From an uncultured Elusimicrobia bacterium (GTDB taxonomy: Bacteria; Elusimicrobiota; Elusimicrobia; Elusimicrobiales; Elusimicrobiaceae): DNA of 33,176 nucleotides. A program made the position numbers and the translations under genes. Under the pieces are notes generated by a model. That model made no database searches, was not told the DNA's origin, and saw nothing but the letters and a program-made list of their open reading frames with translations. The stretch spans positions 1 through 33,176 of the forward strand of contig CAMZGO010000017.1 of assembly GCA_947306425.1 (NCBI GenBank), in the 5' to 3' direction. The first letter of the stretch is position 1; the number at the start of each line of letters is the position of its first letter. Shown in pieces: positions 21,229 through 33,042 of the stretch.

Positions 21229-22695
21229 TTACTTCTTTTTTACATCTTCGTAAAGAGCGTAAAAACCGCGGCCGCCTTGTTTGACGTGATATAAAGCATC
21301 ATCTGCACATTTAAAAAGGTTACTCATTTCATCACTATCAGTCGGAAAAACGGCTATACCCTGGCTGATTGAAAGTTTGACTTCCTTACCGCCGCTTAAA
21401 TCGGCCGGAAGGGAAATTTCTTTAACCCTTTTTAAAAGACGGGCGGCAATATGTTTGGCTTCTTCCCCTGTAGTACGGGGAAGTAATATAACCATCTCAT
21501 CCCCGCCGTAACGGCAAGGCAAATCTGTTTGACGCAAACTTTCTTTAATAATTGTACTTACGGATTTTAAAGCTTCATCTCCAAAAAGATGCCCGTAAGT
21601 ATCATTTATTTGCTTAAAGTAATCAATATCTAACAGTATAAGCGAAAATACTAAATTGAAACGTTTTGAACGGTAAATTTCCTGTGCTAAATTTTCCTTA
21701 AAAAACCGCCTTAAAGCAAGCCCTGTTAAATCATCGTAATTGGAAAGTTCCTGTACCTTTTCAAAAAGACGGGCATTATCAATAGCCAAAGCAATTTGCG
21801 AGGAAAACTGTTTCAAAGATAAAACTTCCCCTTTCTTTATCGGTGTCCTTGAAAGCACATTATCAAAACACATAAATCCCAAATTTTTGCCTTGTACCGA
21901 AAGCGGTATCATCAGGCGTATATCGGAATTTGAAGCATCAGCTACAAGTTTCTTTTTAATATTAGGTCCTATTTCCAATGTCTTAACTTCTCCGGACAAA
22001 TCAACGGAATATCCCTCAATAATATCATTGGTTTTAGGATCACAAAGATAAAGTGAAGTCCTGTCAAACCTAAAGGCATCTTGTATACTTAAAAGTATTT
22101 CCTGCAAACTATCACTAAGACGTAAAGATGTGGCAAAAACAGCAGATAATTTATTTAGGGCTTCAGCCCTTTTAAGCTGCGCACTGTGATACATATCAAC
22201 TTCCGTTAAGTTAATACGGGAAGAAAGTTCCCTGGCTAATTCAATTAAAATTTCTTTTTCGCTTTCGGTAAAGGGTTTATTCTTTTTTAAACGCTCTACA
22301 CGGAAAACACCTAGAGAACTTGGCATTGAAACACCTGTTTTCATAGTCCTGATACTGTTTTGCGGTCCGCGCCATTTAAGCAGGACATACACGGCAGGAT
22401 AATCTAAAGAAGGACTATCCATAACACCGTCTTGCAAAAGCTTAATAATTTCCGGTGAATTTTTATCAACAAAAATATCTTCCTGCAAATTATATACTTT
22501 TTTCCCTTCGCACATTATTTTTAAAGAAAGAACGGATTTTTTATCAAGCCAATCATAATAAAAAACTCTGTCTGCGCCAATATAATCTTCTATCAAAGGC
22601 ATAGCATTGGCGAGCAAAGATTGCATATCCCCAAAATGTTCCGAAAGGGCTTGATAAAAAGAATAAAGCAAATTAGTTCTTTTATTTGTTTCCAT
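21229..22695 (-). CDS. GAF-GAF-GGDEF diguanylate cyclase, cytoplasmic
   Basis: From the ATG at 22695 (1 bp after the upstream stop) the protein is 488 residues. The frame also opens at 22731, inside the upstream gene; neither start has a good ribosome site, so coupling is likely. Two GAF-like domains (~15-170 and ~180-315) precede the GGDEF domain (~320-485). The cyclase has YDDLTGLALRRFF, LDIDYFKQINDTYGH and RYGGDEMVILLPR. The active-site GGDEM is intact apart from the common F-to-M change. RQTD five residues before GGDEM is the canonical RxxD inhibitory site for c-di-GMP. No membrane segment or signal peptide is present. It probably makes c-di-GMP from two GTP in response to a signal sensed by the GAFs or by its operon partner. 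Confidence 0.93.
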   Translation of the reverse strand: METNKRTNLLYSFYQALSEHFGDMQSLLANAMPLIEDYIGADRVFYYDWLDKKSVLSLKIMCEGKKVYNLQEDIFVDKNSPEIIKLLQDGVMDSPSLDYPAVYVLLKWRGPQNSIRTMKTGVSMPSSLGVFRVERLKKNKPFTESEKEILIELARELSSRINLTEVDMYHSAQLKRAEALNKLSAVFATSLRLSDSLQEILLSIQDAFRFDRTSLYLCDPKTNDIIEGYSVDLSGEVKTLEIGPNIKKKLVADASNSDIRLMIPLSVQGKNLGFMCFDNVLSRTPIKKGEVLSLKQFSSQIALAIDNARLFEKVQELSNYDDLTGLALRRFFKENLAQEIYRSKRFNLVFSLILLDIDYFKQINDTYGHLFGDEALKSVSTIIKESLRQTDLPCRYGGDEMVILLPRTTGEEAKHIAARLLKRVKEISLPADLSGGKEVKLSISQGIAVFPTDSDEMSNLFKCADDALYHVKQGGRGFYALYEDVKKK

Positions 22696-22696
22696 A

Positions 22697-23899
22697 CTAA
22701 TCACTGTAAAGGCGAAGTATTTCTTGAACATCCCTATCGGCCTTTTTCAACTCCTGTTTCAAAAGTTCGGGCGTATATTTGCGCATTAAAATAGCGCTTG
22801 AAACAGCCCCCATAACATTTGCCATTATTTCCATAACCGCACCTGTTACAATATGATTCGGCAAAGTTCGTGCGGAAGCAATAATATTAGTATAATTTTG
22901 GACTCTTTGAGGTGATGCTAAAAGGAAATTTTCAAAAGCGCCTTCAAATGCAGGAAAAACTTCCGCCTTTGAAGCATAAGATACTTGTTTATCGGGCCTT
23001 GTAAGCCATTTTAAAAGGGTATATGCGGCTTTGCTTTCTTTGCTTTCCCTCAAAATACCAAGATTAGTACCGCCTAAATAATTAACAATTTTTTTAGCGG
23101 TTTTTGGAATAGGAAGGGTCTTGACTTTAAAACTTTCCCTCTCAAACATAGAAATATTTTGCCGTCTTGTAATAATTAAACTTGATTTACCGGCTGAAAT
23201 ATTCCCAATGGAACTGCGTTCCCTTAAAATAGGCATATATCCCTTTAAAGCCAAATCAATAAAATCTTGCATACCTTCTTGGAAAGCAGTGCTGCTAAAA
23301 CCGGAATTTTGCATATCCTGCGTAAACAATTCCGCACCTCTGCCCCATAAGCAAGGCAGCACAGCCCTATGAGATAAAGAACCCCGCCAATCACTGTTTT
23401 GGACGGGAAAATAATCATCCACGTCATTAAAATGTTCCTTTAATTTGGAACAAATATCCAGCATACCTTGCCAAGTGGAGAGTGCTTCTTCAGGGTTAAC
23501 GGTAACAGCCTTTAGGTGGTCCTCCCTATAATGCAAAGCGGTAATATCAAGCCACCAAGGGAAAGAATAAATTTCCTTAGTTACATTAGAAAAACAATGA
23601 GGGCGCAACGGGTCAATGACTTCGGAAACTGAAATATTTTTATCAAACTTTTTAAGAGGTTCAAGTAATTTAGCAGTGGCTAAAATCTCCGTCCAATAAT
23701 GCGGAAAAGCAATCAAATCAGGGCAGCCCTCTTTTCCAATATCGTGTTTAAGAGTAAAAATTTTAGTCCATAAAGTACGCCGGTTAATAATTTGAACATC
23801 CAAATTTATGTCCGGATTTTGGCGGAGGAAATCCCGCAAAAATCCGTTCATTACATCGGCGGTTTCTAACCCTGTATCGGGCAGCATCCAAAAAATCAT
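22697..23899 (-). CDS. Solute-binding-protein-like protein without signal peptide
   Basis: The 400-residue protein resembles family 1 extracellular solute-binding proteins of ABC sugar importers. MIFWMLPDTG is like the mature N-terminal beta strand of such proteins, followed by PDLIAFPHYWTEILATAKLLEPL and YLGGTNLGILRESKESKAAYTLLKWL. The C-terminal helices (GAVSSAILMRKYTPELLKQELKKA) match the family pattern. There is no signal peptide or lipobox: the ORF starts at the first strand and its ATG overlaps the tsaD stop (ATGA), so no upstream extension fits. It would therefore be cytoplasmic, unlike the family. The next gene, 1 bp downstream, is a cytoplasmic GAF-GGDEF protein, suggesting an intracellular ligand sensor for it. 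No ABC transporter genes are nearby. Confidence 0.85.
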   Translation of the reverse strand: MIFWMLPDTGLETADVMNGFLRDFLRQNPDINLDVQIINRRTLWTKIFTLKHDIGKEGCPDLIAFPHYWTEILATAKLLEPLKKFDKNISVSEVIDPLRPHCFSNVTKEIYSFPWWLDITALHYREDHLKAVTVNPEEALSTWQGMLDICSKLKEHFNDVDDYFPVQNSDWRGSLSHRAVLPCLWGRGAELFTQDMQNSGFSSTAFQEGMQDFIDLALKGYMPILRERSSIGNISAGKSSLIITRRQNISMFERESFKVKTLPIPKTAKKIVNYLGGTNLGILRESKESKAAYTLLKWLTRPDKQVSYASKAEVFPAFEGAFENFLLASPQRVQNYTNIIASARTLPNHIVTGAVMEIMANVMGAVSSAILMRKYTPELLKQELKKADRDVQEILRLYSD

Positions 23900-26349: not shown

Positions 26350-26817
26350 CTAGGTATTAGAACTAGTACACCAATTTATTTCTTGTTTTGTTCTGCCAAA
26401 ATATTTGTATGCTAATTTGTTTTTAAGCAGTAATTTTGATAGGTCTATTTCTTCGCCGAATAAGATATTTTTTACCTCGCAAAGTAAGCGAAAATATTTG
26501 TCACGCTCGCAATTCTTTAAAATAATACTACCAACTGATAGGAAATCTTGTGTTAATTTCTTGGCTCTTTTGGCGGCGGCTTTTTCGCATTTATTTGCTG
26601 TTTTTATTTCAGGTGTATCAATATCTTTTACCCGCACTGATATATTACTGCAAAATATAGGGTAACCGCAAGGCAGATTTACTTTAAAAGTATCGCCGTC
26701 ATAAACAGAAACAATTTTGACATCATAAAAATCTTGTACAGGTTTTGCAAACAAAATACTAGCAACGAATAATAAACAAATAATTATCAGTGTCTTTTTA
26801 GAAATAAAAACGGCCAT
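26350..26817 (-). CDS. Exported staphylococcal-nuclease-family nuclease
   Basis: The 155-residue protein has a signal peptide (residues 1-24, ending LFA-KPVQDF) and a single SNase/thermonuclease OB-fold domain. The catalytic set of S. aureus nuclease is preserved: DGDT at 40-43, then Arg62, Asp67 and Glu70 in VRVKDIDTPE (the R35, D40 and E43 positions), and Arg110 in DKYFRLL (the R87 position). It should be a Ca2+-dependent secreted or envelope nuclease. The frame is open to 26880, but that extension would push the signal peptide inward, so I take the ATG at 26817; no start has a strong ribosome site. It lies upstream of ctpA, separated by ~110 bp with no clear terminator. Confidence 0.87.
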   Translation of the reverse strand: MAVFISKKTLIIICLLFVASILFAKPVQDFYDVKIVSVYDGDTFKVNLPCGYPIFCSNISVRVKDIDTPEIKTANKCEKAAAKRAKKLTQDFLSVGSIILKNCERDKYFRLLCEVKNILFGEEIDLSKLLLKNKLAYKYFGRTKQEINWCTSSNT

Positions 26818-26880
26818 AATTATTTTATGCCTATACAAATCCATAAAATAAAAATAGCCGTAGCCCTCTAAAGAGGACAT

Positions 26881-27170: not shown

Positions 27171-27199
27171 TTGCTTTTTTTTGCGTGCTTTGCTATCAT
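27171..27199 (+). promoter_or_regulatory. Promoter of the multi-PAS gene
   Basis: TTGCTT (27171-27176) and TATCAT (27194-27199) are 17 bp apart with an extended -10 (TTTGCTATCAT); the spacer starts with a T run (27175-27182 is T8). A ribosome site AGGAG (27237-27241) follows. Confidence 0.65.
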
Positions 27200-27250
27200 A
27201 GTAATATAGCCGCATTATCAAATGTTAAATATTAACAGGAGTTTTTATTT

Positions 27251-30200
27251 ATGCCCAAAAGCCAAGGAAACAATTTAATGAATATTATTAAAGCGGTTTT
27301 TACCCCCGTTAAAGAAGGTAAACCCGTAAATGAAAGCGCTGCCGTATTATTAAAATTATTAGAAAATTTGCCCGCCGCAGTTTATGCCAGAGATGAAGAA
27401 AATAATTTAATAATTGCTTCAAAACAAGCAAAAGAAATACTTGGCCTTACAAAATCAAAAAGCAAAAGTGTGATGTCTAAAGAATCAATTAATAAGGATG
27501 AGGAACTTGATAAAACCATTTTAAACAGAGAAATCCCTTTTGAGGAAAACATTACCTATATTAACACCGGAGGCCATACAAGAATTGCAACTATTAAAAA
27601 AAGCCCTCTTTCTTTAACAGGTAAAAAAGCAAATGCCGTATTAACAGTTTTAACCGACAATACAGACCGTTTAACAAAGGAAAACGAAATAGCGAACTCT
27701 AAAGATCTTCTCAAAAGTATTTTAGATAATGCCCCTATGGCTATTTATACGCGCGGTGCTTCCGGCGGGCTTATTTTTTGGAATAAAAAAACAATGGAAA
27801 TTTTTGAAGATGATGAAGAAACCATCGCCAACCCCGGGGCCCATCCTTTGCAAGATGAAGCTGAAGCGGAAAAATATAAAACCAGAGAGGCAGAAATTTT
27901 ACAGGAAGGTAAAGTGGTCATATACCCGCAGGAACCCTATACTACCAGAAACGGACATAAACTTATGCTCCACATAACCAAGATTCCTATATACGCTTCC
28001 GGTGAAATGCCGGAGTGTGTTCTGACTATTGCACAAGATATTACAGAGCGTTATTTGCAAGAACAGGAAAACAACAAAAACCAAAATCTTATTCAAACAA
28101 TTTTGAATAATGCCCCGCTTGCCATTTATGCGCGTGATAATGAAGGAAATATGATTTTCAGAAATAAAACTTCCAGCGATATACATGGTTATCAGTTGGG
28201 AGAATTACCCAATGAAACACCTGAGCAAGTTGAGTTTTATAAACATCGTGAAAAGAGCATTTTTAAAGGTAAAAAACCCGTTGTTTTAGGGGAAGAAGAA
28301 TATACAGGTAACGACGGTAAAAAGCGTATAATCCGCGCAATAAAAGCACCGATATATGACAAGAAGGGCGATCCGCTTATGGTTGTTACTATTTCCGAAG
28401 ATGTAACAGAAAAGCATAAACAAGAACTTGAAGTGCTGCATACAAAAAATTTCCTGAATGAAATCATTGACAACCTCCCTGTTGCTTTGTATGCTAAGGA
28501 CTATAACGGCAAGTATATATTATGGAATAAGAAAAGCGCAGATGTTTTTGGCAAAACGGCAAAAGAGGTTTTGGGGCAAGCACATTATAATGATTCTTTA
28601 AACCCGGAACAAAAAGAATTTATACAAATGCAGGATAAAAATGTCTTTGACATGAAACAGGAACTTGATATTCCGCAAGAACTTATTTCCACCCAAAACG
28701 GCGGAATCAAAATTATGCATACAGTGAAAAAACCTTTGTTCTATGAAGACGGCAATCCGCATTGTTTACTTGGAATTTCAGAAGATATAACCTTAAAAAC
28801 AAAAATGGAAAAACAGGTCTATGAAGCAAAGACACAATACTCTTTGCTTGTGGAAAATTGCAGGGAAGGCATTTTGATTATTGAACAAGGTAAAATATCT
28901 TTTGCAAATAAAACTTTGCTTTCAGCCTTAAATTATACTGCACAAGATGTAGAAAATAAAAACTTTTTGGATTTTGTAACCCAAGAAAACAAAACTTTAG
29001 CGGAAGAATTTTATGATAAAATTAATTCTCAAACCGCGGCCCAAGATTTCGTTACTTTAAAATTTCAAGCGAAAAATGAAGATATTGTTGAGTTTGAAAC
29101 ATCAGGCGTGCGTGCCAAATATTTAGGTAAACGCATAGTGATTCTATTCTTAAGAAATATTACACGCGAGATGAACCAAGCAAGCGAAGGCCAGAAAATT
29201 AAGGACACAAAATTTAAACTTGCCTTTGATTCTTTGCAAGAACCGCAAGTTATTTTACAACAAAACGGGTATGTCTACGAAATGAACCAGGCCGCACGCC
29301 GTTTATTCGGCTTTACTTTAGAAGATAGGCCCGTATACGGAAGTATTTTTATCGCCCCGGGTTTCCCGCTCAAAGCACGCCGCGCTTTAGTACAGGTAAA
29401 ACCGCTCGATTTTGAAGCAATAATAAATTTTGATCGTATTAAAAAAACAGTTCCGGAAGTTGTAAAAGAAGGACGTTTAAAGGTATCAGTAAAGATGAAG
29501 CCGTTTAATATACGTATCGGTTTAAACGGTAAACGTACGGCAGATTTCCTTTTGGAACTTAAAGCGATAGACGAGAGTGTAATAACCCCGGAAGATGTTT
29601 CCCCTTTACTTACCGGCCATGATATCTTGGCATATAAGGACAGTGTCCTGCTTTGTTCAAAACAGGGTGCAATACTTAAATGCAATAAAGAGGCAGAAGC
29701 CCTTTTGGGTAAAGACAGTGAGTTTTTAAAAGAACATACCTTATATGATATCTTTGATGAACAAAGCCGCTTATATTTGAAAAAAGATACCGAAGAACTT
29801 TATAATCAGGGTACTTTATCAAACAGGGAGTATGTCCTTGCCAAGAATTACGGAGGCCTTACTTTGGATTGTGAAGCAGTTCTCGCTAAGGGAGAAAATT
29901 TCCTCCTTTCCTTAAGGAACAATACAAGTAAAAGGCAACTTTTGGAAGTGCTTGATGAAAGGACTTCCCATAATGAAGCTTTAAAAAGATGTTTGGGCGG
30001 TGTCTTGCTGGAATGTATGTTGAAAGAAAAAGACGGTGTAAATATCTTTACGCCTTTTACAGTTATTTCGCCGGAAGTTTGCACTTTAAGCGGTTATAGC
30101 CGTCATGAACTTGGGCATTTAAATTTGGTTGATATGTTTTCTAATCAATCTATGAATGAAAAAGAGCGCAGCCAAATTATTGAGTATTTAAGTAAAAAGG

Positions 30201-31618
30201 CTGCCCTTTTAAAGGAAGGTAAAACTATTAGCTTTGAGGCTAAAGTCTATTTTAAAACACGTACGACAATATGTCTGTTTACCTTAACTTTATACAAAAC
30301 TGCAGGGGAAGACAGGGTCGTAATAGTTTTAAAAGAGGTAGCCAAGGAAAAAGAAATTGCGGAAAACTTAACACAAGCAAGTAAAGAACTTGAAGGCATA
30401 AAAGAGTGCCTTGAAAGTGTTTATTTAAAACTTGATAAAAAGGGTAAAGTAATTTCTTGCGGAATCGGCAAAGGTAAAGATTTGGCAGGGCTGCGTTCCA
30501 AAGATATTTTAAACAAAAATTTAGCAGACTTTTTGCCAAAGCAAAATGCAAAAAACATTTTGACGCATCTTAAATTAACGCTTAAGGACAATATTCTAAA
30601 CAAAGGGCGCTTCTCCTTGTATGAGGGTGATCAGGAACATTTTTATGAATATACCATCTCTCCTCTGTTAGGGGAAGATAAAGTGCAAATGTTTATAAAC
30701 AGCGTTGATATTCATCATGGTTTTGAAGAAAAGGTTAAGCACTTATATATGCTTTTAAACCGTGCAGGTACTTCCTTTGTGGATAATATGGATGCAATTT
30801 TGCAGTACGGTAACAGCACCTTTAATTCGGATGCTGCCTTAATTTGCCATTTCAGCGGGGAAAATAAGGATAAGATTTTGATTAACTATGTTACTGATAA
30901 TAAAATAGGCATACAACAAAACAAAGAATTTAAAGTCGGCCTATGCCTTGACGAAATCCGGCAAGAAAAAGTTCTTGTAATGAATGATTTAAGTCCGCTT
31001 ACTTGCAAGAATTGTTTGCATGAAAAATACAAATTACAATCCTTGCTTGCCGCACCTTTAACCATTAAAGGAAAGGTAGAAGGTGTTATGTGTTTTGTAA
31101 GTACAGACAAAAATAAAATGAAACTTGGTGAAGAAGAGGAAAATCTTATTTCTTTTATGTCCAATTTAATGAGCATGGCCCTTGAAACAAGACAAGCCAA
31201 AAAAGCAACCAGCAATAGTTTGGCCACAATGCGCCATTTGATGAAAACATTGGACGTTCCTGCTTTTATTACCGATGATGAATTGCGTATAAAAAATGCA
31301 AATGACACCCTATTCTCTATGTTTGAAATATATGACTTGGCGGAAATTGATGATAGGGAAATCTTCCAACTATTTGCCTTTGATGTCCAAAAAGCAAAAG
31401 AAGATTTTTATAGTTCCTATAAAACTTCAAAAGGAGGAGTGTTTGACTTTATGTTTGAAGTCAAATTGCCTGATTTAAAACGAACAAATTTACTTTGGCA
31501 CGTAGTGGAAATCAAAGATGGACGCGGTAAAGTGCGCGGATATTTATTTGCGTCAGAAAGCATAAAGGATTTGGATTTTCTTAAACCCTTAACAAACAGC
31601 CGTTATCACGGTTTTTAA
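27251..31618 (+). CDS. Giant multi-PAS/GAF protein without output domain
   Basis: The 1455-residue soluble protein has no signal peptide or membrane segment. I count about ten PAS-like domains and one GAF. PAS1-4 (~33-525) are near-repeats sharing NAPMAIYTR/NAPLAIYAR/NLPVALYAK cores, each ending in a TxxxDxTE-type connector. More diverged PAS5-9 follow (~528-1160), then a GAF (~1160-1320) containing ICHF and CKNCLHE, and a last PAS (~1325-1455). No histidine kinase (HisKA/HATPase), GGDEF, EAL, HD-GYP, PP2C or receiver domain is visible. It may be a scaffold or sensor that works through partner proteins. Cys residues near the GAF could bind a metal or cluster, but this is not shown. Shine-Dalgarno AGGAG is 9 bp before the ATG. 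Confidence 0.88.
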   Translation: MPKSQGNNLMNIIKAVFTPVKEGKPVNESAAVLLKLLENLPAAVYARDEENNLIIASKQAKEILGLTKSKSKSVMSKESINKDEELDKTILNREIPFEENITYINTGGHTRIATIKKSPLSLTGKKANAVLTVLTDNTDRLTKENEIANSKDLLKSILDNAPMAIYTRGASGGLIFWNKKTMEIFEDDEETIANPGAHPLQDEAEAEKYKTREAEILQEGKVVIYPQEPYTTRNGHKLMLHITKIPIYASGEMPECVLTIAQDITERYLQEQENNKNQNLIQTILNNAPLAIYARDNEGNMIFRNKTSSDIHGYQLGELPNETPEQVEFYKHREKSIFKGKKPVVLGEEEYTGNDGKKRIIRAIKAPIYDKKGDPLMVVTISEDVTEKHKQELEVLHTKNFLNEIIDNLPVALYAKDYNGKYILWNKKSADVFGKTAKEVLGQAHYNDSLNPEQKEFIQMQDKNVFDMKQELDIPQELISTQNGGIKIMHTVKKPLFYEDGNPHCLLGISEDITLKTKMEKQVYEAKTQYSLLVENCREGILIIEQGKISFANKTLLSALNYTAQDVENKNFLDFVTQENKTLAEEFYDKINSQTAAQDFVTLKFQAKNEDIVEFETSGVRAKYLGKRIVILFLRNITREMNQASEGQKIKDTKFKLAFDSLQEPQVILQQNGYVYEMNQAARRLFGFTLEDRPVYGSIFIAPGFPLKARRALVQVKPLDFEAIINFDRIKKTVPEVVKEGRLKVSVKMKPFNIRIGLNGKRTADFLLELKAIDESVITPEDVSPLLTGHDILAYKDSVLLCSKQGAILKCNKEAEALLGKDSEFLKEHTLYDIFDEQSRLYLKKDTEELYNQGTLSNREYVLAKNYGGLTLDCEAVLAKGENFLLSLRNNTSKRQLLEVLDERTSHNEALKRCLGGVLLECMLKEKDGVNIFTPFTVISPEVCTLSGYSRHELGHLNLVDMFSNQSMNEKERSQIIEYLSKKAALLKEGKTISFEAKVYFKTRTTICLFTLTLYKTAGEDRVVIVLKEVAKEKEIAENLTQASKELEGIKECLESVYLKLDKKGKVISCGIGKGKDLAGLRSKDILNKNLADFLPKQNAKNILTHLKLTLKDNILNKGRFSLYEGDQEHFYEYTISPLLGEDKVQMFINSVDIHHGFEEKVKHLYMLLNRAGTSFVDNMDAILQYGNSTFNSDAALICHFSGENKDKILINYVTDNKIGIQQNKEFKVGLCLDEIRQEKVLVMNDLSPLTCKNCLHEKYKLQSLLAAPLTIKGKVEGVMCFVSTDKNKMKLGEEEENLISFMSNLMSMALETRQAKKATSNSLATMRHLMKTLDVPAFITDDELRIKNANDTLFSMFEIYDLAEIDDREIFQLFAFDVQKAKEDFYSSYKTSKGGVFDFMFEVKLPDLKRTNLLWHVVEIKDGRGKVRGYLFASESIKDLDFLKPLTNSRYHGF

Positions 31619-31665: not shown

Positions 31666-31698
31666 TTATACAGAAGCATAATTATTGGAGAGGTGTTT

Positions 31699-33042
31699 AT
31701 GTCAAATTACATTGAAGAAGTGATGGAACAAGTTAGGAAAAAGGACCCGTCTGAAGCCCTTTTTCATCAGGCAGCAGAAGAGGTTTTAACATCTTTAAAA
31801 CCCGTAATTGATGCAGAACCCAGATATAAAAAATATTCAGTTTTAGAACGTATGATTGAGCCGGAACGCGTTATAATGTTCCGCGTACCTTGGCTTGACG
31901 ATAAAGGCGTGATGCGCGTAAACCGCGGTTACCGCGTACAATTTAACAGTGCCATAGGGCCTTATAAGGGCGGTATGCGCTTACACGAAAGTGTTACTCT
32001 TGCAAGTTTAAAATTCTTAGGTTTTGAACAAACATTTAAAAATTCTTTAACCGGCTTGCCTATGGGCGGCGGTAAAGGCGGTTCTGATTTTGATATACGC
32101 GGCAAAAGCGAAACGGAAGTTATGCATTTTTGCCAAAGTTTTATGTCTGAATTATACAGGCACATAGGCGAAAATACCGACGTTCCCGCAGGTGATTTGG
32201 GCTGTGGTGCGCGCGAAGTTGGTTATATGTTTGGGCAATATAGAAAACTTGCTAATAAATTCGTCGGGGTATTTACCGGCAAAGGCGTAAGTTTCGGGGG
32301 CAGTTTAATCAGGCCGGAAGCAACCGGTTTCGGCGTTGTATATTTCGCCCAAGAAATGCTTAAACTTAAAGGCGAAGATTTTAAAGGCAAAGTTTGTATT
32401 ATTTCAGGAACGGGTAATGTCGGCATACATACGGCACAAAAACTTATGGAACTCGGTGCAAAAGTTGTCGGCTTCAATGATTACGACGGCGCTGTTTACG
32501 ACAAAGACGGCCTTGATGCTGAAAAACTTGCCTTCCTTAAGGACCTTGTTTTCGTAAAACGCGGCAGTCTAAAGGAATATGTAAAGAAATTTCCGCGGGC
32601 AGAATTCCATGAAGGAAAAAAGACTTGGTTTATTCCTTGTTACGCTGCTTTCCCGACTGCTTGCGAAAACGAACTTAAAGATGAAGATGCCGCAACATTA
32701 ATAAAGAACGGTGTCAAACTTGTTTGCGAAGGCGCAAATATGCCTTGTACATTAGGTGCAGTTAAACAATTTCAAGAAGCAGGTGTTTTGTATTCCCCCG
32801 GTAAAGCTTCAAATGCCGGCGGCGTGGGTGTATCAGGGTTAGAGATGACACAAAATTCCATCCGTTTATCTTGGAGCAGGGAGGAAGTTGATGCCCAACT
32901 CCATAAAATTATGGTACACATTCATAATTCTTGCGTTGAAGCCGCAAAAGAATATGGTATGCCCGGCAATTATTTAGCCGGTGCAAATATTGCTGGCTTT
33001 AAGAAAGTTGCCGAAGCCATGATTGCACAAGGCTTAGTTTAA
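31699..33042 (+). CDS. gdhA: Glutamate dehydrogenase, NAD(P)-dependent
   Basis: The 447-residue enzyme (E. coli GdhA is also 447) interconverts 2-oxoglutarate plus ammonium and glutamate. Conserved parts are GPYKGGMRLHESVTLASLKFLGFEQ (substrate-binding Lys region, ~88-112), LTGLPMGGGKGGSDFD (active site ~118-133) and DVPAGDLGCGAREVGYMFG. The Rossmann segment ISGTGNVGIHTAQKLMELGAKVVGFND binds the cofactor. NADP versus NAD cannot be decided by eye. The frame opens at a GTG (31693), but the ATG at 31699 is better spaced from GGAGAGG (31687-31693). It has its own promoter and terminator. Confidence 0.96.
   Translation: MSNYIEEVMEQVRKKDPSEALFHQAAEEVLTSLKPVIDAEPRYKKYSVLERMIEPERVIMFRVPWLDDKGVMRVNRGYRVQFNSAIGPYKGGMRLHESVTLASLKFLGFEQTFKNSLTGLPMGGGKGGSDFDIRGKSETEVMHFCQSFMSELYRHIGENTDVPAGDLGCGAREVGYMFGQYRKLANKFVGVFTGKGVSFGGSLIRPEATGFGVVYFAQEMLKLKGEDFKGKVCIISGTGNVGIHTAQKLMELGAKVVGFNDYDGAVYDKDGLDAEKLAFLKDLVFVKRGSLKEYVKKFPRAEFHEGKKTWFIPCYAAFPTACENELKDEDAATLIKNGVKLVCEGANMPCTLGAVKQFQEAGVLYSPGKASNAGGVGVSGLEMTQNSIRLSWSREEVDAQLHKIMVHIHNSCVEAAKEYGMPGNYLAGANIAGFKKVAEAMIAQGLV

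What the first reader, a model, noticed from the sequence alone, without database searches (positions are those of the whole stretch)
27251..31618. 1455-residue PAS/GAF array with no effector
About ten PAS domains and one GAF occur in one soluble chain, with four near-identical N-terminal PAS repeats, but no kinase, cyclase, phosphodiesterase or phosphatase. Proteins with so many sensors normally end in an output domain, so a partner or a scaffolding role is implied. It has its own extended -10 promoter and is not in an operon.
Basis: partly seen in the sequence, partly recalled or inferred. Interest (0 to 1): 0.7.

Follow-up and report, generated by a model that had tools for sequence, protein, structure and literature searches.

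The report
Detached ten-PAS sensor without an output
A large gut-bacterium protein is made only of sensor domains, and in the lineage that carries it a conserved signalling kinase has lost its own sensor, so the two probably work together as a sensor and a kinase made as separate proteins, although their contact has not been shown.

Summary
The 1455-aa ORF is real and is under purifying selection. It contains ten PAS domains and one GAF domain and no output domain. Pfam on 29 orthologs and AlphaFold models covering all 1455 residues leave no room for a cryptic effector. The four N-terminal PAS repeats are 25-36% identical, not near-identical. The protein is specific to Elusimicrobiaceae: single copy, rarely next to any kinase or regulator, with a variable PAS number.

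The host genome (1.44 Mb) has five histidine kinases. One, a soluble 261-aa HisKA-HATPase protein, has no input domain. Its locus (outer-membrane-barrel-like gene followed by kinase) is conserved across the order. In relatives without the array the kinase carries its own GAF-PAS sensor (~520-540 aa). In nearly all genomes of the three genera with a typical array it is cut to ~250-285 aa, starting just before the phospho-accepting helix.

Best explanation: the array is a detached, multi-input cytosolic sensor that controls this kinase in trans. The kinase's domain loss and its co-occurrence with the array are shown. The partnership is inferred: the transition may be a single event on the tree, and the one g4 genome keeps a divergent array without the kinase. 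The array's GAF has a nearly invariant Cys3-His motif that could hold a metal or Fe-S centre.

The parts
27251..31618 (+). 1455-aa PAS/GAF array, no output domain
   Evidence: AGGAG ribosome-binding-like sequence at 27237-27241
27171..27199 (+). possible promoter TTGCTT-17-TATCAT with TG before the second hexamer
   Evidence: read; not above chance in scan
27332..27661 (+). PAS1 (residues 28-137)
   Evidence: AlphaFold model; Pfam
27728..28042 (+). PAS2 (residues 160-264)
28109..28405 (+). PAS3 (residues 287-385)
28472..28789 (+). PAS4 (residues 408-513), the most conserved domain (62% mean identity over 29 orthologs; W425 and H490 invariant)
28856..29161 (+). PAS5 (residues 536-637)
29234..29569 (+). 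PAS6 (residues 662-773)
29633..29926 (+). PAS7 (residues 795-892)
29993..30340 (+). PAS8 (residues 915-1030)
30413..30709 (+). PAS9 (residues 1055-1153)
30758..31186 (+). GAF domain (residues 1170-1312)
   Evidence: Pfam GAF_2 E 2.4e-8
30944..31021 (+). conserved Cys/His motif in the GAF: C1232, C1252-x2-C1255-x-H1257
   Evidence: 93-100% conserved in 29 orthologs
31247..31561 (+). PAS10 (residues 1333-1437), last domain; the protein ends 18 residues later
31693..33042 (+). neighbour: glutamate dehydrogenase; next to the array also in two close relatives, not in the other loci of the genus read
26350..26880 (-). neighbour, divergent: SNase-domain protein

Best explanation
The protein is a soluble multi-input sensor without its own output, made of ten PAS domains and one GAF in a row joined by signalling-type helices. 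It most likely acts in trans on the soluble sensorless histidine kinase encoded elsewhere in the genome (G000:C16:34610-35392, 261 aa). Ligand- or redox-driven changes in the PAS/GAF chain would be passed by protein contact to the kinase's dimerisation helix and set its autokinase or phosphatase balance. The kinase would then phosphorylate a response regulator not encoded beside it. Shown here: architecture, absence of output, conservation under purifying selection, loss of the GAF-PAS input from an otherwise order-wide kinase, and co-occurrence of that loss with the array. Inferred: physical contact, direction of control, the ligands, and a metal or Fe-S centre in the GAF.
For: No output domain in 29 orthologs or in the models. 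The own genome has five histidine kinases: four have input, receiver or other long N-terminal regions and only P0002 is bare HisKA+HATPase. The phospho-acceptor His is at residue 17-32 of the short kinases against 301-303 in the two long relatives of the family, with the catalytic boxes kept. The locus is orthologous over the order: a ~285-aa barrel-like gene precedes the kinase in nearly all 30 long-kinase loci and in the short-kinase loci read. The long GAF-PAS form is found in most f2 genomes, g3 and g5; the short form in g1, g2 and g6. Array: all 57 g1/g2/g6 genomes of the family sample; no full array in g3, g5 or f2. Array dN/dS about 0.04-0.10.
Against: No direct evidence of contact. The array and the short kinase are unlinked: within 8 kb of 70 arrays only one has any histidine kinase and one a response regulator. 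Both changes may fall on one branch, where genomes also shrank, so they may be a single coincidence. The g4 genome G020 keeps a divergent array (about 26-28% identity, GAF Cys motif absent) with no ortholog of the kinase. G041 (g2, 66% complete) has the array but no short kinase found. The array's GAF-PAS end is not detectably the kinase's lost GAF-PAS (weak profile hit). Two g6 genomes have arrays lacking the GAF region yet keep the kinase.
Confidence: 0.45

Rival explanations
1. The array acts through another histidine kinase, the membrane-bound dCache-HAMP-PAS-HisKA-HATPase protein (G000:C10), through PAS-PAS contacts. It would modulate a kinase that has its own extracellular input.
For: It is the only other protein of this genome found by the PAS_9 profile. 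A likely ortholog with the same neighbours is present in G020, the genome that has an array but lacks the short kinase.
Against: It has a complete input of its own (dCache, HAMP, PAS) and needs no detached sensor. It is not linked to the array in the flanks examined.
Confidence: 0.15
2. The array is a structural hub or scaffold that gathers several signalling proteins, for example the two GGDEF proteins, the single-domain response regulators and kinases, rather than a sensor of one kinase.
For: Length, repeated domains and a PAS number that changes between species fit a scaffold. The own genome has three stand-alone receiver proteins and two GGDEF proteins.
Against: PAS4 and the GAF Cys/His motif are conserved at specific residues, which suggests ligand or cofactor binding. 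No partner was identified.
Confidence: 0.2
3. The array regulates a non-kinase target directly (a metabolic enzyme such as the neighbouring glutamate dehydrogenase, or the transcription machinery).
For: Glutamate dehydrogenase is next to the array in G000, G002 and G011.
Against: The neighbour differs in the other loci of the genus and family that were read. No DNA-binding domain is present.
Confidence: 0.08
4. The array is a relic that lost its output domain and drifts.
For: Natural shortened forms exist in G050 and G126, and a stop-interrupted form in L163.
Against: dN/dS about 0.04-0.10 overall and low in every third; retained in all 57 g1/g2/g6 genomes of the family sample despite genome sizes of 1.0-1.8 Mb.
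Confidence: 0.03

Closest known systems
H-NOX / NosP stand-alone sensors with their histidine kinases (PMC8738867)
   Same: A soluble sensor protein without output controls a separate histidine kinase by contact.
   Different: H-NOX is one heme domain and its gene is usually adjacent to that of its target; here there are ten PAS and one GAF, the gene is unlinked, and the kinase has no input of its own.
Multi-PAS/GAF sensor histidine kinases (up to 19 PAS in one cyanobacterial kinase, PMC10468136)
   Same: Long tandem PAS array on one chain.
   Different: Those arrays belong to kinases; this family has no kinase or other output in any ortholog examined.
Chloroplast sensor kinase CSK / Hik2 (PMC6949291)
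   Same: Conserved cysteine in a GAF domain, there needed for a redox-active [3Fe-4S] cluster.
   Different: The Cys pattern was not compared directly and no cofactor is known here; CSK is itself a kinase.
Chemoreceptors acting on CheA (from general knowledge)
   Same: Sensors act in trans on a kinase.
   Different: No MCP signalling domain found in the array.

Membership tests
PAS/GAF sensor histidine kinase | HisKA/HATPase_c on the same chain | tested here: not met
   None by Pfam in 29 orthologs; none in models
PAS-controlled c-di-GMP enzyme (DosP-like) | GGDEF, EAL or HD-GYP domain | tested here: not met
   the PF24820 hit is a sensor-domain model lying on a PAS domain
Chemoreceptor | MCP signalling domain | tested here: not met
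PAS transcription factor (PpsR-like) | helix-turn-helix or other DNA-binding domain | tested here: not met
   models
Stand-alone sensor acting on a kinase in trans (H-NOX/NosP kind) | sensor chain without output | tested here: met
Stand-alone sensor acting on a kinase in trans (H-NOX/NosP kind) | gene next to its kinase | tested here: not met
   kinase near the array in 1 of 70 loci
Stand-alone sensor acting on a kinase in trans (H-NOX/NosP kind) | physical binding and control of kinase activity | not testable with these tools
   needs biochemistry or complex prediction
Split histidine kinase (input and catalytic parts on separate chains) | an input-less kinase whose orthologs carry an input | tested here: met
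Split histidine kinase (input and catalytic parts on separate chains) | co-occurrence of the two chains | tested here: inconclusive
   Holds in g1, g2, g6 apart from one 66%-complete genome and one with only a kinase fragment; g4 has a divergent array and no kinase; may be one evolutionary event
Fe-S GAF sensor (CSK/AirS kind) | conserved cysteines in the GAF | tested here: met
   C1232, C1252, C1255 93-100% conserved, H1257 93%
Fe-S GAF sensor (CSK/AirS kind) | bound Fe-S cluster | not testable with these tools
   spectroscopy needed

The most novel reading that the evidence does not exclude
In a whole family of gut Elusimicrobiota an order-wide histidine kinase lost its GAF-PAS input and its control passed to a separately encoded array of about ten or more PAS domains with a cysteine-liganded (possibly Fe-S) GAF: a histidine kinase split into an unlinked giant multi-input sensor and a bare catalytic core.
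Probability: 0.4. Interest if true: 0.75.

Novelty: new variant of a known kind. Interest (0 to 1): 0.55.

Why it matters
Multi-PAS chains are usually read as the input half of an enzyme. A family-wide, strongly conserved chain with no output, beside an orthologous kinase that lost exactly its input, would be a natural case of sensor and kinase separated onto unlinked genes, with the number of inputs free to change by PAS duplication. It gives a named pair of proteins to test. One genome that carries both matches in size that of the cultured Elusimicrobium minutum Pei191. It would also explain how small-genome gut bacteria keep many inputs with few kinases.

Tried and rejected
Cryptic effector: rejected by Pfam, NCBIfam and AlphaFold on both halves; Foldseek with the C-terminal half gave DosP, PpsR, FixL and phytochromes, all PAS- or GAF-bearing. 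Frameshifted adjacent kinase: no. The kinase's own GAF-PAS moved to the array's end: only a weak match (E 0.0026 with Z=1000), and the long kinases of G019 and G021 lack the array's Cys motif in the sequences shown; not claimed. The short membrane kinase directly upstream of the array in G017 (L006) as general partner: rejected, since no such kinase was found in G000 although its array is conserved. A fused array-kinase in the order: none found; the best distant matches of the array's end are stand-alone ~295-aa GAF-PAS proteins and other sensory proteins. Conserved gene neighbour: glutamate dehydrogenase only in the nearest clade; a secreted-protein family near the array in 12 of 70 loci, of no Pfam family. 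The 2009 E. minutum genome paper is not held.

Full report
Observation. The ORF at 27251-31618 encodes 1455 aa in one frame. Pfam finds only PAS-type families and one GAF above cut-off; no kinase, cyclase, phosphodiesterase, phosphatase, MCP or DNA-binding domain is found in it or in 28 orthologs of down to 28% identity. NCBIfam gives sensory-box matches and generic sensor matches far below their cut-offs. AlphaFold models of residues 1-660 and 640-1455 (mean pLDDT 80.3, 79.7; pTM 0.38 and 0.33, so domain arrangement is unreliable) resolve ten PAS domains, one GAF between PAS9 and PAS10, and helical linkers, with nothing left over. The first four PAS are 25-36% identical to each other, so 'near-identical' is wrong. 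The extended -10 exists as letters, but the region has no more promoter-like sites than shuffled sequence.

It is a real, selected gene. The array is single copy. In close pairs dN/dS is about 0.04-0.10 over the full length and low in each third. In a 60-genome family sample it is present in all 18 genomes of genus g1, 3 of g2 and 36 of g6, several as contig fragments; in the single g4 genome it is shorter and divergent; it is absent from g3 and g5. A scan of 84,980 species genomes found 70 relatives in Elusimicrobia-type MAGs and unnamed gut bins; four further hits are generic PAS matches. Genome G018 has 1,643,562 bp, the published size of Elusimicrobium minutum Pei191 (PMC2613244). PAS number varies at the N-terminus: about one extra in one part of g1, more in some g6. 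PAS4 is the most conserved domain, with W425 and H490 invariant. In the GAF, C1232, C1252, C1255 and H1257 are conserved in 29, 28, 27 and 27 of 29 orthologs; in two Elusimicrobium-type sequences the last two positions read A and C. The pattern suggests a metal, Fe-S or redox centre (inference; a precedent is the GAF domain of CSK/Hik2, PMC6949291).

Where is the output? Flanks of up to 8 kb around 70 arrays hold one histidine kinase and one response regulator in all. The own genome has seven HATPase_c proteins, of which two are GyrB and MutL by sequence, leaving five histidine kinases; it has six receiver domains and two GGDEF proteins, and the PAS_9 profile hits only the array and one kinase. 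Four of the five kinases have Cache-HAMP-PAS, HAMP, receiver or other long N-terminal regions; the fifth (P0002, C16:34610-35392) is HisKA plus HATPase only.

The fifth kinase has an informative history. Across the order its ortholog is a protein of about 520-545 aa with an N-terminal GAF (Pfam) and a PAS-like segment before HisKA (inferred from the sequence and from PhoR- and PnpS-type matches). This long form is found in most of the f2 genomes and in g3 and g5. In g1, g2 and g6 the match starts at about residue 273-296 of the long form and the frames are about 247-284 aa, apart from read-through frames; one 66%-complete g2 genome has none and one g1 genome only a fragment. In G000 the barrel-like gene ends 8 bp before the short kinase, so no hidden 5' part exists. 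That barrel-like gene precedes the long kinase in nearly all of 30 loci and is detected by a profile built from the short-kinase loci, so the loci are orthologous. Catalytic boxes are kept. Thus a conserved kinase lost its input in the lineage that carries a conserved input-only protein.

Mechanism and limits. The simplest reading is that the array supplies the input in trans, as H-NOX does for its kinases (PMC8738867). This is inference. The coincidence may be one event on the tree, in a lineage whose genomes also shrank. G020 has a divergent array, without the GAF cysteines, and no short kinase; this is either decay after partner loss or evidence against the pairing. Two g6 genomes with shortened arrays lacking the GAF region keep the short kinase, so if the pairing is right the contact probably lies in the N-terminal PAS1-PAS6 part, where conservation peaks. 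The array's GAF-PAS end is not demonstrably derived from the kinase's lost GAF-PAS.

Verdict. It is a new variant of a known kind (sensor acting on a kinase in trans), with moderate confidence.

Noticed in passing
L030:1051-1836, L099:5748-8911 (G000:C16): Operon-like order: barrel-like protein, sensorless histidine kinase, 158-aa protein of no known family, AI-2E family transporter; the barrel plus kinase pair is conserved over the order.
   Followed up: partly
P0001 residues 1-20 and orthologs in A2: A short N-terminal motif (M-x-K-N-hydrophobic-F-S-F-F-S-K) is conserved in many g2 and g6 arrays and looser in g1; possibly a membrane or partner binding peptide.
   Followed up: no
L230:3180-6191; L231:3653-6898; L163:989-5776: Natural variants of the array: 1003 aa ending after PAS6, 1081 aa lacking the GAF region, and one with an in-frame stop in the GAF; the first two genomes keep the short kinase.
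   Followed up: partly
L007:5834-7084, L020:1061-2416, L163:5854-6558: Secreted, often Cys-rich proteins of no Pfam family lie directly downstream of many arrays outside the window's clade.
   Followed up: partly
L223:2648-3535, L225:2408-3286, L228:2405-3280: Stand-alone ~295-aa GAF-PAS proteins without output in f2 genomes, among the best distant matches of the array's C-terminal part.
   Followed up: no
window 21229-22731 (-): GAF-GGDEF protein, one of only two GGDEF proteins in this genome.
   Followed up: no
L006:6340-7224 (-): Membrane histidine kinase of 294 aa directly upstream of the array in G017; not found in the window's own genome.
   Followed up: partly
L028:691-1839: Receiver domain fused in front of a histidine kinase, between a HAMP kinase gene and a response regulator gene: looks like a phosphorelay operon.
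   Followed up: no
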